DNA from: a virus
Length of the DNA: 40,918 nucleotides
Reading direction: 5' to 3' (one strand)
Virus record (IMG/VR): IMGVR_UViG_3300033180_000003
Location: 1-40,918 of that record
The first letter of the stretch is position 1, and the number at the start of each line of letters is the position of its first letter. The translations under genes and the position numbers were made by a program. Under the pieces are notes generated by a model. It searched no databases. It was given only the letters and a program-made list of their open reading frames with translations, and was not told the origin of the DNA. Shown piece after piece: positions 3,007-23,105 of the stretch.

Positions 3007-3299
3007 TTCTCCTCCTGTTCAGCCAACAGGGCCATGTAGGCGTCAGCGAGACGCGCCATCACCGCAGCGGTCAACATGTCGTTTCGGAACACCGCCCGCT
3101 CTATGAGGTCCCGAGCCCGCTGCACTACTTCCGGTTCTTCAGGCGGCAGGACTTCTAGGGATGCCATGCGGCGGTTGATGGATGCGTATAGAGGGCCCTC
3201 GTCGCCCTGCCGCAACTCCCACCAATCGAGCGTCTCACCCTCAAGGATCGCTTCAAACGTCACGCGTACCCGCGTTCCCGGCTTGATGGACTCAGACAT
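3003..3299 (-). CDS. hypothetical early protein, SH3-like N-terminus, 98 aa
   Basis: Starts MSESIKPGTRVRVTFEA, a beta-rich opening reminiscent of the small SH3-like or Tudor-like domains of phage proteins, followed by a helical C-terminal half (RARDLIERAVFRN..). The ATG at 3299 is preferred over the in-frame TTG just upstream. It overlaps the upstream gene by eight bases. Function unknown. Confidence 0.55.
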   Translation of the reverse strand: MSESIKPGTRVRVTFEAILEGETLDWWELRQGDEGPLYASINRRMASLEVLPPEEPEVVQRARDLIERAVFRNDMLTAAVMARLADAYMALLAEQEEK

Positions 3300-3453
3300 C
3301 AAAAGCCTCCAGAACGTGCGAAAGGCTGCACCCAGCGTCTAGGTACGAGCGGAGCCATTTCTCGACGCCCCGTTCGACCGCCTCTATGTCGAGAGGCTCG
3401 GGCGTTTCTTGCCAGACGTAATCGCTCAGACTCATCGGCTCGTCGTCACTCAT
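3292..3453 (-). CDS. hypothetical early protein, 53 aa
   Basis: Acidic small protein (MSDDEPMSLSDYVW start). The internal ATG was chosen because the longer frame would run into the upstream gene; at this ATG the overlap with the previous stop is one base. No motif recognised. Confidence 0.5.
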   Translation of the reverse strand: MSDDEPMSLSDYVWQETPEPLDIEAVERGVEKWLRSYLDAGCSLSHVLEAFDV

Positions 3454-14577: not shown

Positions 14578-14726
14578 GGGGTTGTCGCCACCCACACTGC
14601 GACCGCACAGGAAACGACCGCGGCGATAAGGAGACTGATCGTGAGGGCTGTCGGGCCGTTGGCGGTCAGGTACCCGACGACGACGCCGACAGCGAACACA
14701 CCGCAGAGCACCGCGAGGCCGCTCAC
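14574..14726 (-). CDS. 50-aa two-helix membrane protein
   Basis: Two hydrophobic helices (residues about 4-21 and 28-46) joined by the short polar turn LTANGPTA give a small hairpin membrane protein with Cys in both helices. The GTG start overlaps the stop of the Ala-repeat gene (GTGA), and its stop overlaps the next start (ATGA). Small-holin-like topology, but it lies in the early region, so another membrane role is more likely. Confidence 0.55.
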   Translation of the reverse strand: MSGLAVLCGVFAVGVVVGYLTANGPTALTISLLIAAVVSCAVAVWVATTP

Positions 14727-15538
14727 GCCGACACCGAGATCAGCCGGTCGAACAGGTCTATGGCGGACTGCTGAAGCTCAGCGACGGTAGGGGCGAGAGC
14801 GGCCCAAGCAGCGGCCCAAGCAGCGTCCCCAGCAGCGTCCCCAGCAGCGGCCCCAGCAGCGGCCCGAGCAGCGTCCCGAGCAGCGTCCCGAGCAGCGGCC
14901 CCAGCAGCGGCCCGAGCAGCGGCCCAAGCAGCGTCCCCAGCAGCGTCCCAAGCAGCGGCCCGAGCAGCGGCCCCAGCAGCGTCCCCAGCAGCGTCCCAAG
15001 CAGCGGCCCCAGCAGCGGCCCGAGCAGCGGCCCGAGCAGCGGCCCCAGCAGCGGCCCAAGCAGCGTCCCCAGCAGCGTCCCAAGCAGCGGCCCGAGCAGC
15101 GGCCGAGTGGGTTGCTGCGTCGCGGACCATGTCGCCCACTGCCGCAGCGGCTTCCAGCGTGTCGATCGGCTTCAACCCCGCCAGCGCGTCGGCATCGGGC
15201 ACGAGCGCGGGAACGAGCCGTAGCCACGTTGGGGTGTAGACGCGGATCAGCCAGTCCAACGCCATGTAGCCGCGGCGCTCATCCAAGACCGGATTTCCAG
15301 CAGTGCCGATCAGCCGGGGCGCGAAGGGAACAAGTTGCTGCCGCAGATCATCAGGTAGGGCGTCGTTGAGCCGCTGCCCGTACGTCGCCAAGACGGAGGC
15401 GACGCATTCCGGTCGGTCCGACCACGGCTCGCCCGCCATCCACCCGGCGAGTTCAAGGAGACATGCTCCTTCCTCGAACCGGGAGTGCCCGCCGGTGTCG
15501 AGTTGCAAGTTCTGGGGGATGTCGTGGACAACGGTCAC
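14723..15538 (-). CDS. conserved protein with Ala-rich tetrapeptide repeat tail, 271 aa
   Basis: The N-terminal 140 residues (GGHSRFEEGACLLELAGWMAGEPWSD..., LNDALPDDLRQQLVPFAPRLIGT, DWLIRVYTPTWLRLVP) belong to a protein type common in actinophages and Actinobacteria; no biochemical role is known to me. The next roughly 100 residues are about 25 copies of a tetrapeptide, A/D-A-A-(W/G/R), encoded by a 12-base DNA repeat. This would form a continuous helix with one stripe of Trp, Gly or Arg. The C-terminus (VAELQQSAIDLFDRLISV) is an ordinary amphipathic helix. The GTG start overlaps the upstream stop (GTGA). The repeat number probably varies between relatives. Confidence 0.7.
   Translation of the reverse strand: MTVVHDIPQNLQLDTGGHSRFEEGACLLELAGWMAGEPWSDRPECVASVLATYGQRLNDALPDDLRQQLVPFAPRLIGTAGNPVLDERRGYMALDWLIRVYTPTWLRLVPALVPDADALAGLKPIDTLEAAAAVGDMVRDAATHSAAARAAAWDAAGDAAWAAAGAAARAAARAAAGAAAWDAAGDAAGAAARAAAWDAAGDAAWAAARAAAGAAARDAARDAARAAAGAAAGDAAGDAAWAAAWAALAPTVAELQQSAIDLFDRLISVSA
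14806..15110. repeat. about 25 tandem 12-bp repeats inside a coding region
   Basis: Units are variants of GCGGCCCRAGCA and GCGTCCCMAGCA in head-to-tail order with no spacers. They lie fully in frame with the Ala-rich protein on the minus strand. Variation is confined to a few positions that switch the encoded Trp, Gly, Arg, Ala and Asp residues. Confidence 0.9.
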
Positions 15539-15732
15539 AGCGAAACTCCTAGCGGGATAAGGGGTGCGGGGGTGTGGTCGATGAGCCGGACGAGTACGGA
15601 CCTGAACGCCTGGTGTGTCTCCAGGACGGCGAGGGCGTTCGCCGCGGTGCCGTCCTCCGCGCACGCCAGGACCGCTGCTGTCGCCGCCTCAAACTTTTGG
15701 TTGAGCCACGCCGCCTGCGATTCGGTGATCAC
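15535..15732 (-). CDS. hypothetical helical early protein, 65 aa
   Basis: Helical throughout (ESQAAWLNQKFEAATAAVLAC..., NALAVLETHQAFRSVLVRLID). The GTG start overlaps the stop of the upstream 53-aa gene (GTGA), which decides the start. No family recognised. Confidence 0.55.
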   Translation of the reverse strand: MITESQAAWLNQKFEAATAAVLACAEDGTAANALAVLETHQAFRSVLVRLIDHTPAPLIPLGVSL

Positions 15733-17906: not shown

Positions 17907-18004
17907 GCCGACCCCTCCGGTGCCCTGAACGCCCAGTTCAGGCAGAGCGCGGCGACGGCCAGCCCGGCTGCTAGTCCGGTGATGAAACCGGCAAGACGGA
18001 TCAC
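17903..18004 (-). CDS. 33-aa single-helix membrane peptide
   Basis: One hydrophobic helix (residues about 4-24, GFITGLAAGLAVAALCL), then a short polar tail. The GTG overlaps the stop of the HNH gene and its stop overlaps the next start. Being early and immediately after the switch, it is expressed among the first genes. Confidence 0.5.
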   Translation of the reverse strand: MIRLAGFITGLAAGLAVAALCLNWAFRAPEGSA

Positions 18005-18447
18005 GAAGCACTCGCAAGGTCAGCGAGGAGACGCTTCCGGCCAGCCCGCAGGCGGCGCAGGTAGGCGTTCTCACAAGTGCGGCACTTCCGGTGCCCGGTC
18101 TTCGTCGGCTTCACGTTCTCCGGCGTCCACTCGTGGCCGTTGCGGCAGTGCGTCGAGGCGGGCAACGCTTGGACGAAGTCCCGTGCGCGCTCGTTGTTCA
18201 AAGCGGCACTGACGGGCTCAAGGTGAGTGACGTTCACACACGCCCGGTTCCGGCACAGGTGATCAAGGTGTTCGGCGACGATCGGGCCGTTCAACCACTC
18301 CCACACCCGGCGGTGAGCGGTTGTCACACCCCCGCGGCCGTTCCCTGCTTGGCCGTAGCCGCTGGGCATCCGGCACCCGGACCACTCGATGCAGTCATCG
18401 ACGCCCTGGGCTTGGATCGCCCGGTACAGCGGCCCCCCGCGGCGCAT
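18001..18447 (-). CDS. HNH endonuclease (homing type), 148 aa
   Basis: Pattern of mobile HNH nucleases: CIEWSGCRMPSGYGQ at the start, HRRVWEWLNGPI, then the HNH core EHLDHLCRNRACVNVTHLEPV, and a C-terminal zinc finger CRNGHEWTPENVKPTKTGHRKCRTC. It is the second gene of the leftward early operon, overlapping the stop of the HTH gene. Homing nucleases often sit beside regulatory genes, so this may be an inserted selfish element. Confidence 0.85.
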   Translation of the reverse strand: MRRGGPLYRAIQAQGVDDCIEWSGCRMPSGYGQAGNGRGGVTTAHRRVWEWLNGPIVAEHLDHLCRNRACVNVTHLEPVSAALNNERARDFVQALPASTHCRNGHEWTPENVKPTKTGHRKCRTCENAYLRRLRAGRKRLLADLASAS

Positions 18448-18626
18448 CAGGACGCGGCCTTGGTGCCCGAAGCGCGGATCTGGTCGATGACTGCCGGGTC
18501 GTACTTGTAGCGCCCGCTGGGCAGCTTCACAGCGTCGATGTCGCCCTGCGTCGCCCAGCGAGTGAGCGTTCGTACGCTGACACTGAGCCGTTCGGCTGCT
18601 TCCTTGGGTGCCAGTAGTGACGACAT
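18447..18626 (-). CDS. Xis/Cro-like helix-turn-helix protein, 59 aa
   Basis: A compact MerR/excisionase-type winged helix: LLAPKEAAERLSVSVRTLTR (helix-turn-helix), then WATQGDIDAVKLPSGRYKY (wing). It is the first gene of the leftward early operon and diverges from the repressor, the place of a Cro or excisionase gene. It probably represses the repressor promoter and/or sets integrase directionality. Its predicted transcript starts at the ATG itself: TTGACG, 17 bases, TAGAAC, then TGACGCATG. Confidence 0.75.
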   Translation of the reverse strand: MSSLLAPKEAAERLSVSVRTLTRWATQGDIDAVKLPSGRYKYDPAVIDQIRASGTKAAS

Positions 18627-18713
18627 GCGTCAGTTCTACGCCATATGCCGAGTGGCGTCAAGCGTCAATTGTCGTGTCTTGACGTGGATCATGGTTTGGT
18701 GCACATTTGACGC

Positions 18714-18716
<3 letters not shown>
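18624..18716. promoter_or_regulatory. divergent, mirror-symmetric leaderless promoters and operators of the lysogeny switch
   Basis: Rightward (repressor): TTGACG at 18679-18684, 17 bases, CACATT at 18702-18707, then TGACGC and ATG. Leftward (Xis/Cro): TTGACG at 18656-18661, 17 bases, TAGAAC at 18633-18638, then TGACGC and ATG. Both start codons are thus embedded in TGACGCATG (18708-18716 and, inverted, 18624-18632), and both transcripts would begin at the start codon. TGACG-type hexamers recur five times in both orientations and may double as operator half-sites. An outer inverted repeat GTCAAG/CTTGAC overlaps both -35 elements. Confidence 0.65.
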
Positions 18717-19088
<372 letters not shown>

Positions 19089-19091
19089 TCC

Positions 19092-19955
19092 GTGTCCGTA
19101 GTCGTCCACGTCGCGTTCGGTAGTGCCACCCTTCAGCCCGTGCTGGGGATCGAAACCGAATGGGCAGGCGCAATCGATCTCTGGGTTAAGTGGCTGACCG
19201 CCGCGCAGCGCCCAGCGACGACGATCGGGCTGCGGGTGTACCAAATCCAGCGGTTCGCGTTAGATCACCCGGATGCCGACCCGTTCGGGCTGACCCTCGA
19301 TGACCTCATCGGGTGGCTCGCCGCATTCGAGTGGAAGCCGCAGACCCGCCGTTCCTACCGATCCGCCCTTCGGGTGTTCTGCGCGTGGGCACACGCCACC
19401 GGCCGGGCCTCAGCGAACCCGGCAGCTCTACTACCGGCAGTCACCCCGCCGCGGGGGAAGCCACGTCCGGCACCCGACGACGTCCTCAGCCAGGCGATGA
19501 CCGTCGCCACGGACCGGGTTCGGCTGATGCTGCGCCTCGCCGCCCACGCAGGTCTACGCCGCGCAGAGATAGCGGCCGTCCATCGCGATGACCTCGAACT
19601 CGACGCGGACGGCTACATGCTGCGCGTAGTCGGGAAAGGTGGGACGGTGCGGCTCGTGCCCGTCCTCGATGACCTCGCGATGGCGATCCGCATGTCTCCC
19701 ACCGGGCCGATGTTCCCCGGCCGGATCGACGGCCACCTATCCCCCCGCCGAGTCGGCGAGCTGATGTCCGAAGCGCTCCCCGGACACTGGACCGCGCACA
19801 CGCTGCGGCACCGCTTCGCGAGCAAGGCGTACGCCGCCGAACGCGACATCCTCACAGTCTCCGCCCTACTTGGGCATGCCTCCGTGACGACGACGCAGAT
19901 CTACACCGCGATCCCGTCCGGGGCGTTACGCAACGCTGTCATCGCGGCAGCTTGA
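19092..19955 (+). CDS. int: tyrosine integrase
   Basis: Site-specific recombinase that joins attP to the host tRNA-Lys gene. The N-terminal SAM-like core-binding domain spans residues about 25-115, and the catalytic domain follows. Active-site residues are Arg in HAGLRRAEIA, Lys in VGKGGTVR, His-x-x-Arg in HTLRHRFAS, His in LLGHASVTTTQ and the nucleophile Tyr in IYTAI. At 287 residues it is a short integrase with little or no arm-binding domain visible, as in BPs-type phages. It ends AVIAAA, an ssrA-like C-terminus that may cause rapid turnover. The GTG start lies three bases after the repressor stop, so the two are co-transcribed before integration and separated after it. Confidence 0.92.
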   Translation: MSVVVHVAFGSATLQPVLGIETEWAGAIDLWVKWLTAAQRPATTIGLRVYQIQRFALDHPDADPFGLTLDDLIGWLAAFEWKPQTRRSYRSALRVFCAWAHATGRASANPAALLPAVTPPRGKPRPAPDDVLSQAMTVATDRVRLMLRLAAHAGLRRAEIAAVHRDDLELDADGYMLRVVGKGGTVRLVPVLDDLAMAIRMSPTGPMFPGRIDGHLSPRRVGELMSEALPGHWTAHTLRHRFASKAYAAERDILTVSALLGHASVTTTQIYTAIPSGALRNAVIAAA

Positions 19956-20944: not shown

Positions 20945-21017
20945 TGCCCCTGGCAGGATTCAAACCTGCGACCTTGCCGCTTCGAGACGGATGCTCTTTT
21001 CACTGAGCTACAGGGGC
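20945..21017 (-). tRNA. atypical tRNA-like gene, anticodon uncertain (CGA by position)
   Basis: Exactly 73 bases with paired acceptor arms GCCCCTG/CAGGGGC and discriminator A, a D stem GCTC/GAGC, and a T stem GCAGG/CCTGC. Three abnormalities stand out. The D loop (AGTGAAAA) lacks the GG pair. The T loop is TTTGAAT instead of TTCGAAT. The anticodon stem pairs only as TCCG/CGG-A with a bulged C, leaving an eight-base loop TCTCGAAG. By U33 position the anticodon would be CGA, yet the long serine variable arm is missing. It could be a decayed tRNA, a noncanonical decoder or a structural mimic. No CCA is encoded. Confidence 0.55.
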
Positions 21018-21455: not shown

Positions 21456-23105
21456 CTAGCTGTTGGTGACTGTTGGCTGGGCTGGGCGGACAGAGGTGAC
21501 GGACGGGCCTGGCGGGTTGACGCCGGTCACCGATGGCGTCCGGCGGGTGACCGCTGTGACGGTGCCGCCGGACGATGATGTGACGGTTCCCTCGACGACG
21601 AAACCGATCTGAAGGGAAAGCGCGGCAGTTGATGGGGCCGTGACCGCACCGGAGACCGTCAGACCGACCGTGACCGGGAGTGCGCCAGCGGTCGGTTTGG
21701 CTGCCGTTCCGGCTGCCGCGATCCCGACCGTGACCGGAATTGCTGTGTCGCCGTAGCGGGTGACGAACCCGGTAGCGGTGAGCCCGACGCTCGTGGCGAG
21801 CGAGGTAGCCGAGTTCTTGGTGGCGGTGCCCGATGCTGTCAGCGCCACCGTTGCGCCAAGGGAAGACGACGCCGGTTTCGTCGCCTGTCCGGTGGCGGAC
21901 AGCGCGACGGTGGTGTCTAGGGTTGCGGTGGTCGCACCTGCTGATGTAACCGTGCCAGCGACGGCGAGCCCGATGGTCGTCGCGAGTGTTGCGGTGGTGG
22001 GCTTCGACGCGTCGCCGGATGCAGCGAGGGTGACCGTCGTCGCGAGCGTATTGGCGTCCGACGTCTTCGTCGCCTGTCCGGTAACCGCCAGACCGACGGT
22101 CGTGGCAAGCGTCGCGTCGGTTGCCTTCGACGCCGTCCCGGTCGCCGCGAGCCCGACGGTTGTCGCCAAGGTTACGGTGGTCGGCTTGCTGGCGGTGCCG
22201 GTCGCGGACAGGGCGACTGTGATCGGGATGGACACGTCGCCGAGACGAGTCACCGAGGCGGCCGCGGACAAGGCGATCGTGGTGGCGAGCGACGCCGTGG
22301 ATGACTTAGTGGCCTGTCCGGTGGCGGACAGCGCAACCGTTGTCGCGACCGTCGATGTGGTCGCCTTGTCCGCGGTCCCTGATGCCGACAGGCCCACGGT
22401 TGTCGCGAGGGTCGCTGTCGACGTCAACGTGCCAGCGGCCGGTGCGATGACGACCGTAGCGAACGTCCGGCCGGTGCCGGGGTTGCCGTCGGAGAACGTG
22501 ACAGCACCCGGTGTTTGCGAGACCCCCGATCCGCCCGTGAGGACGCGGTACTCCGTCGTGCCCGTGTGGTAGATCGAGGGGATCGCGCCGCCACCCGCGA
22601 GGGTGTAGCTCGCACCGGCGGAGAACGTGACACCAGTGTGCCCGTTGCCGTTGCAACCAGCGGCGCCGATGACCATGCAGTCGTTGACGCTAGGCGTCCG
22701 CGCGGGCGGCGGAATCGTCGTCGCAGTGTTGTTATCAGAACCGATCGTGTTCTGGTTGATCGGGCTGGTCGCGTCCGCGCCGGTGATTTCGAGGATCTCG
22801 CCCGAGCACAGGTCGCCCGCCCCGGAGATCGTGAACGTGACTGTCGTTTCGCCGCCGGTGACGTTCGCCTGCGGCTTGTAGTAGGTCGCGAGCGCCGTAC
22901 CGCTAGTGACTGCGGTGACGGTGTCGATGCGGGTCCAGCCGGTGGGGGTGGTGACCGTGAAGCTGCTGCCCTTCCACCGGATCGTGGCGTACAACAGACT
23001 GCCGGCGGTCGGCGCAGCCCACCCCGCACCGGAGTTGAACACGACCGATCCGGCGTTCCCTGAACCGGACCCGGCCTTTGCCCACTGAGCGACAGCGAGG
23101 ACCAC
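21456..23105 (-). CDS. virion-associated protein with about 13 tandem repeats, 549 aa
   Basis: Residues about 1-225 form a beta-rich domain with Gly/Thr/Ser character (WAKAGSGSGNAGSVVF..., FTISGAGDLCSGEILEITG) like phage appendage proteins. Residues about 228-520 are roughly 13 copies of a 20-residue unit with consensus LATTVxLxATGxAxK. Two or three copies have insertions such as TRLGDVSIP. A Thr/Pro/Val tail ends the protein. The GTG start has a GGAGG ribosome site. It is the last gene of the late operon, a usual place for tail-tip or surface-decorating proteins. Host-surface adhesion is the likely job. Confidence 0.7.
   Translation of the reverse strand: MVLAVAQWAKAGSGSGNAGSVVFNSGAGWAAPTAGSLLYATIRWKGSSFTVTTPTGWTRIDTVTAVTSGTALATYYKPQANVTGGETTVTFTISGAGDLCSGEILEITGADATSPINQNTIGSDNNTATTIPPPARTPSVNDCMVIGAAGCNGNGHTGVTFSAGASYTLAGGGAIPSIYHTGTTEYRVLTGGSGVSQTPGAVTFSDGNPGTGRTFATVVIAPAAGTLTSTATLATTVGLSASGTADKATTSTVATTVALSATGQATKSSTASLATTIALSAAASVTRLGDVSIPITVALSATGTASKPTTVTLATTVGLAATGTASKATDATLATTVGLAVTGQATKTSDANTLATTVTLAASGDASKPTTATLATTIGLAVAGTVTSAGATTATLDTTVALSATGQATKPASSSLGATVALTASGTATKNSATSLATSVGLTATGFVTRYGDTAIPVTVGIAAAGTAAKPTAGALPVTVGLTVSGAVTAPSTAALSLQIGFVVEGTVTSSSGGTVTAVTRRTPSVTGVNPPGPSVTSVRPAQPTVTNS

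What the first reader, a model, noticed from the sequence alone, without database searches (positions are those of the whole stretch)
18624..18716. Mirror-image leaderless promoters in the switch
Both divergent genes show exactly the same layout: TTGACG, 17 bases, a -10-like hexamer, TGACGC, then ATG. The start codons lie in inverted copies of TGACGCATG. Both mRNAs should begin at the start codon. One protein binding the repeated TGACG motif could control both promoters symmetrically. This tidy symmetry is not forced by coding constraints.
Basis: seen in the sequence. Interest (0 to 1): 0.72.

Follow-up and report, generated by a model that had tools for sequence, protein, structure and literature searches.

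The report
Leaderless phage switch with start-codon operators
This is the lysis-lysogeny switch of an actinobacterial virus, in which both control genes appear to be read from their very first letter and the repressor's binding sites sit on the lytic gene's promoter and start codon; the layout recurs in dozens of related viruses.

Summary
The layout is real and not chance: TTGACG-17-hexamer-TGACGC-ATG occurs exactly twice in the window, facing outward. It is the control region of an integration-dependent immunity (IDI) switch. A repressor (phrog_2328) with a tRNA-Lys attP core inside its 3' end lies next to a tyrosine integrase; both proteins end in -AA. Opposite is an excisionase-like HTH gene.

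Among 46 non-redundant related switches, the lytic gene has TTG 34-37 nt before a start codon in 46 of 46 and the repressor gene in 35 of 46, against 2 of 45 control genes; Shine-Dalgarno-like cores are nearly absent. Leaderless transcription of both genes is therefore well supported, though not measured.

The mirror symmetry is only partial. Repressor-type palindromes are centred on the lytic promoter's -35 box (4 of 5 pairs here) and its start codon (5 of 5); the repressor side has one weak copy. Repressor residue 48, in the predicted recognition helix, covaries with the half-site across relatives; no excisionase residue does significantly.

In this phage alone the tRNA piece is in sense, so integration should cut the repressor from 124 to 112 residues and put tRNA-Lys under phage transcription. 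New variant of a known kind.

The parts
18447..18626 (-). 59-aa HTH_17/MerR-like protein, excisionase / lytic regulator (xis); first gene of the lytic side
   Evidence: Pfam HTH_17 35.3 bits (cut-off 27); phrog_66 excisionase and transcriptional regulator E 1.7e-8
18656..18661 (-). -35 box TTGACG of the lytic promoter (PR)
   Evidence: TTG at -34..-37 in 46 of 46 relatives
18633..18638 (-). -10-like hexamer TAGAAC of PR, ends 6 nt before the ATG
   Evidence: not a strict TANNNT
18618..18632 (-). operator centred on the xis start codon: TGACG-CATGT-CGTCA, 10 of 10 half-site bases; reaches into codons 2-3
   Evidence: only 10/10 site in the window, 0.13 expected; same place palindromic in 18 of 46 relatives
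18653..18667 (-). operator centred on the PR -35 box: TGACG-CTTGA-CGCCA, 9 of 10 half-site bases, 4 of 5 arm pairs
   Evidence: 33 of 46 relatives have 4 or more pairs there
18646..18660 (+). overlapping alternative site TGCCG-AGTGG-CGTCA in the PR spacer (9 of 10)
   Evidence: may be a by-product of the shared CGTCA
18679..18684 (+). -35 box TTGACG of the repressor promoter (Prep)
   Evidence: TTG at this distance in 35 of 46 relatives
18702..18707 (+). -10-like hexamer CACATT of Prep, ends 6 nt before the ATG; CACACT and CAGACT in phages Schnabeltier and Babsiella
18708..18722 (+). half operator over the repressor start codon: TGACG-CATGA-CAGCA (8 of 10; only the left arm intact)
18714..19088 (+). 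124-aa immunity repressor (Rep), 434-type HTH, ends PLRRAA
   Evidence: phrog_2328 E 3.4e-15; model residues 14-80 match 434 Cro, Z 10.8, rmsd 1.7 over 65
18993..19031 (+). 39-base core shared with the 5' half of host tRNA-Lys(CTT), in sense and in frame in rep: presumed attP core; tRNA-like sequence begins at 18987
19032..19088 (+). rep tail (18 codons, ends LRRAA) that integration should remove
   Evidence: ssrA-like tag by analogy with BPs
19092..19955 (+). tyrosine integrase, ends NAVIAAA
   Evidence: Pfam Phage_integrase 58.3 bits; end read

Best explanation
This is the immunity and integration switch of a temperate actinobacteriophage of the integration-dependent type. Two divergent sigma-A-type promoters each start transcription at or within one base of the start codon, so both mRNAs are leaderless. 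The repressor, a 434-type HTH protein, binds TGACG half-site palindromes centred on the -35 box and on the start codon of the lytic (xis) promoter and so shuts it off; a weaker half operator over its own start codon may give mild autoregulation. In the free phage Rep is a 124-residue form with a degradable -AA tail. Integration at a host tRNA-Lys gene through the core inside rep replaces that tail, giving a stable form of about 112 residues that holds lysogeny. Shown: sequence layout, conservation, palindromes, covariation, gene identities, in-frame tRNA core, predicted fusion. Inferred: actual start sites, DNA binding, degradation, integration site.
For: Exact double layout. Repressor, excisionase and integrase families, and the same gene order in the 10 phage records read. 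Layout at 46/46 and 35/46, background 1.5 and 2.25 of 46 at other offsets. Best -10-like hexamer ends 6-7 nt before the start in 44/46 and 35/35; Shine-Dalgarno-like cores 0/46 and 1/35 against 22/45 controls. Independent of the -35: strict TANNNT peaks at 6-7 nt (summed 24 and 17, against 0.92 and 0.28 per offset elsewhere). Operators on the -35 (33/46) and start codon (18/46), background 3.1%. Rep residue 48: E with TCG/TCA 14/14, T/L/I/M with CTG 11/11; partial correlation 0.375, 0 of 300 permutations; best Xis column 0.237, 34 of 300. tRNA core in frame; fusion stops at residue 112 with all five host tRNA-Lys genes tried. In 7 of 25 loci scanned a host tRNA overlaps the rep 3' end.
Against: No transcript, footprint or lysogen data. 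Window -10 hexamers are poor and a consensus scan finds no promoter. 11 of 46 relatives lack the TTG box on the repressor side, and four of these also lack TANNNT (L125, L151, L167, L172). Up to three candidate starts per gene were allowed, which inflates counts, though the offset controls had the same freedom. The covariation test corrects for overall identity but not fully for ancestry, and residue N48 itself goes with TGA (2), TTG (1) and TCG (1). No exact 45-base attB in 396 actinobacterial genomes. No excess of operators elsewhere in the window (5 sites of 9 or more outside the switch against 3.1 expected overall), unlike BPs.
Confidence: 0.8

Rival explanations
1. The TGACG palindromes are binding sites of the 59-aa excisionase-like HTH protein (Cro-like), not of the repressor.
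For: It is a DNA-binding protein of the MerR/HTH_17 type encoded next to the sites, and overall Xis identity correlates with half-site similarity somewhat more than Rep identity does (0.568 against 0.43).
Against: No single Xis column exceeds chance (34 of 300 permutations), while Rep residue 48, in the predicted recognition helix, exceeds all 300. L158, with a different Rep subtype, shares both N48 and the TGACG half-site with the window.
Confidence: 0.15
2. The mirrored TGACGCATG boxes are coincidence plus ordinary promoter consensus: TTGAC is a common -35 core and only the start-codon hexamer needs explaining.
For: TGACGCATG twice in the window is reached in 10 of 100 shuffles; the repressor-side box is not kept in L158, the only other TGACG-type switch.
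Against: Same six bases plus both TTGAC boxes arose in 0 of 20,000 shuffles, and both start codons lie in operator-like sequence, fully palindromic on the lytic side.
Confidence: 0.2
3. Both genes have short leaders made from other start sites, and the boxes are operators only.
For: Degenerate -10 hexamers; no consensus promoter.
Against: Distance from -35 and -10 to the start codon is held across the family and Shine-Dalgarno-like cores are nearly absent.
Confidence: 0.1

Closest known systems
Integration-dependent immunity of mycobacteriophage BPs (gp32 integrase, gp33 repressor, gp34 Cro-like; PMC4557955) and of Brujita-type phages
   Same: attP inside the repressor gene, integrase downstream, divergent lytic promoter, -AA tail on the repressor, repressor sites overlapping PR and the Prep start
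   Different: BPs half-site is CGACATATGTCG between -35 and -10 and recurs at other loci of its genome; here TGACG palindromes sit on the -35 and the start codon, with no excess elsewhere; the tRNA piece here is in sense; the word leaderless does not occur in the BPs paper text
Gordonia phages of Cluster CW (GMA5, GRU3, Jeanie, McGonagall; PMC5559632)
   Same: integration-dependent immunity with attP matching a tRNA-Lys gene; related integrase stretch
   Different: repressors differ in sequence and their C-termini (CAIRDSNPEPAD) read like the antisense of a tRNA
Phage PY54 cI/cro switch (PMC4488713)
   Same: both repressor mRNAs shown by RACE to begin at the AUG, i.e. leaderless on both sides
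   Different: lambda-type switch of a telomere phage; no attP in the repressor gene; operator OR3 upstream of cI
M. abscessus prophages MabA1 (PMC8092301)
   Same: attP rebuilds the 5' end of the host tRNA, noted there as unusual
   Different: not among the integration-dependent clusters listed in that paper

Membership tests
Integration-dependent immunity system | attP core lies inside the repressor reading frame | tested here: met
   39-base tRNA-Lys core at 18993-19031, in frame in rep; its use as attP is not shown
Integration-dependent immunity system | tyrosine integrase gene downstream of the repressor | tested here: met
   19092-19955, Phage_integrase
Integration-dependent immunity system | repressor (and integrase) end in an ssrA-like -AA tail | tested here: met
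   PLRRAA and NAVIAAA read from the translations; degradation itself not testable here
Integration-dependent immunity system | integration shortens the repressor through a stop codon at the junction | tested here: met
   in silico fusions with five host tRNA-Lys genes all stop after 112 residues; the real host is unknown
Integration-dependent immunity system | only the short form confers immunity | not testable with these tools
   needs strains expressing each form
Integration-dependent immunity system | repressor homologous to those of known systems | tested here: met
   phrog_2328; 36-49% identity to nine phage repressors aligned, Schnabeltier and Brujita among them
Leaderless divergent promoter pair | transcription starts at the start codon | tested here: inconclusive
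   spacing, conservation and lack of Shine-Dalgarno support it; no 5'-end data
tRNA-dependent lysogeny | short core, host tRNA not rebuilt, phage tRNA of the same isotype | tested here: not met
   core is 39 bases and would rebuild tRNA-Lys; the one phage tRNA-like gene (20945-21017) has no Lys anticodon

The most novel reading that the evidence does not exclude
Switches of this family are leaderless on both sides, and the lytic gene's start codon is itself the centre of a repressor operator, so that repressor specificity, read by one recognition-helix residue (position 48), and the second and third codons of the excisionase evolve together. In this phage attP is turned round, so that in the lysogen the host's tRNA-Lys is cut from its own promoter, rebuilt behind rep, and must be transcribed from the phage, tying an essential host tRNA to the repressor transcript.
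Probability: 0.3. Interest if true: 0.7.

Novelty: new variant of a known kind. Interest (0 to 1): 0.55.

Why it matters
Integration-dependent immunity has been worked out mainly in BPs. A shared design rule (leaderless on both sides, operators centred on the lytic -35 and start codon, one recognition residue that tracks the half-site) would allow immunity specificity and start sites of many actinophages to be predicted from sequence, and makes the code testable by swapping one residue. If the sense-oriented attP works as predicted, prophage loss or repressor shut-off would also affect a host tRNA.

Tried and rejected
A single-sequence search of the viral collection with Rep found nothing; the alignment A1 did. 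Dispersed operators as in BPs were sought and not found in excess. tRNA-dependent lysogeny was considered and set aside. BPs itself is not in the phage collection under the two accessions tried, so its intergenic sequence was not compared. Aca2, HipB and 434 repressor came up as weak sequence matches of Rep (best E 0.01); only the 434-type fold is used, from the model. Four small Gordonia phages with another repressor type (L185-L188) were printed and not scored. Rows dropped before the counts of 46: L136, L142 and L150 (repressor hit on the other strand or no excisionase found) and 15 near-duplicates. L173, a disrupted repressor, is counted in the 46; it is not among the 33 loci of the covariation test, which needs 4 or more operator pairs. 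Of 34 phage records with a Rep match ten were fetched for the comparison.

Full report
What is there. The window is a 40,918-base virus record. Between 18447 and 19955 lie a 59-aa HTH gene on the minus strand (Pfam HTH_17, phrog_66 excisionase and transcriptional regulator), a 124-aa gene on the plus strand (phrog_2328 transcriptional repressor) and a tyrosine integrase. The 87 bases between the two start codons hold the reported layout exactly; the full 38-base pattern matches twice in the window, both here, and the next places have 3 mismatches. In 20,000 shuffles of the intergenic stretch the shared hexamer plus TTGAC on both sides never arose. Against this, TGACGCATG alone is only mildly rare, the -10 hexamers are poor, and a strict promoter scan finds nothing.

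What kind of switch. A 39-base stretch inside the repressor frame, 18993-19031, is identical to the 5' half of tRNA-Lys(CTT) genes of a Blastococcus and a Nocardiaceae genome. The integrase lies just downstream and both proteins end in -AA. These are the features of integration-dependent immunity, which I read about in PMC4557955 (abstract, passages, two sections), PMC5559632 (passages) and PMC8092301 (passages); the founding 2013 paper is not held and is known to me only from citations and recall. Ten phage records with related repressors show the same divergent HTH or excisionase-like gene and an integrase downstream. In 7 of 25 loci scanned for tRNAs, a host tRNA gene overlaps the 3' end of rep (L141, L168, L175, L177, L181, L182, L183), as expected for integrated copies.

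Comparison set. An alignment of ten repressors (A1) brought 43 viral and 10 genome loci. With the window and ten phage loci this makes 64; 3 were dropped for lack of a usable pair and 15 as near-duplicates, leaving 46.

Leaderless layout. A TTG box lies 34-37 nt before one of up to three candidate start codons in 46 of 46 lytic genes and 35 of 46 repressor genes; at other distances the mean is 1.5 and 2.25 of 46. For the chosen starts the best -10-like hexamer ends 6-7 nt before the start in 44 of 46 and 35 of 35; since that hexamer was searched within spacers of 16-19, this is partly built in. Strict TANNNT, scored without regard to the -35, peaks at the same 6-7 nt (repressor side 10 and 14, lytic side 1 and 16; elsewhere 0.92 and 0.28 on average). 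Shine-Dalgarno-like cores are found in 0 of 46 and 1 of 35, against 22 of 45 other genes from six phage loci, of which 2 of 45 have the TTG. [quoted passage not shown] Phage PY54 has both repressor mRNAs leaderless by RACE (PMC4488713, passages), so two-sided leaderless switches are not new in themselves.

Operators. Palindromes with 5-base arms and a 5-base centre sit on the lytic -35 box (centre usually CTTGA; 4 or more pairs in 33 of 46) and on the lytic start codon (18 of 46), against 3.1% at other places; on the repressor side the counts are 3 of 35 and 0 of 35. In the window these are TGACG-CTTGA-CGCCA and TGACG-CATGT-CGTCA. The half-site differs between phages (TCGTG, TCGCG, CTGTG/C, TTGTG, TGACG and others). 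A perfect TGACG-N5-CGTCA occurs once in the window, at 18618-18632 (0.13 expected), and sites of 9 of 10 elsewhere are few (5, with 3.1 expected over the window).

Who reads them. Over 33 switches with a clear -35 operator, identity at Rep residue 48 tracks half-site similarity beyond overall identity (r 0.375, 0 of 300 permutations reach the best column); the best Xis column does not stand out (0.237, 34 of 300). Residue E goes with TCG or TCA (14 of 14), T, L, I or M with CTG (11 of 11), N with TGA (2), TTG (1) and TCG (1), S is mixed (3), H with TGG (1). In the model (mean pLDDT 78.6; HTH part above 90) residue 48 lies in helix 43-50; residues 14-80 match 434 Cro with Z 10.8, rmsd 1.7 over 65 residues. 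Ancestry is not fully removed by this test.

The attachment site. In 14 of the 46 relatives rep carries an antisense tRNA T-arm pattern; the window alone carries a sense D-arm pattern (one sense T-arm-like match in L133 and one downstream of rep in L141 were also printed). So here the core is the 5' half of the tRNA and runs with rep. Joined to five real tRNA-Lys genes, rep would stop after 112 residues (ending VRGSSP or VRGSKP), losing the 18-residue tail. The rebuilt tRNA would then lie behind rep, away from its own promoter; that part is inference. M. abscessus MabA1 phages also rebuild a tRNA 5' end, noted as unusual, but are not listed among the integration-dependent clusters. I found no paper that describes leaderless promoters or start-codon operators in integration-dependent switches in five searches; the library holds open-licence papers only.

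Noticed in passing
window 20945-21017 (-): A phage tRNA-like gene (Rfam tRNA 51.8 bits) whose anticodon loop folds with 6 bases, so that ARAGORN gives no isotype (anticodon 'cg').
   Followed up: partly
window 14723-15664 (-): A 313-aa frame with a long run of alanine-rich repeats; only a weak PHROG match of unknown function.
   Followed up: partly
window 21456-23105 (-): A 549-aa frame with many imperfect repeats of the type LATTVGLSATGTA; no PHROG match.
   Followed up: partly
window 18001-18447 (-): An HNH endonuclease gene whose start overlaps the end of the excisionase gene, so it is probably in the same early lytic transcript.
   Followed up: no
L158 (IMGVR_UViG_2622736604), 2471-2878: The only other switch with a TGACG half-site; its repressor belongs to another subtype but also has N at position 48.
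   Followed up: partly
L177 (Blastococcus sp.), 3287-3361: A related prophage repressor runs into the same kind of host tRNA-Lys(CTT), but in antisense.
   Followed up: partly
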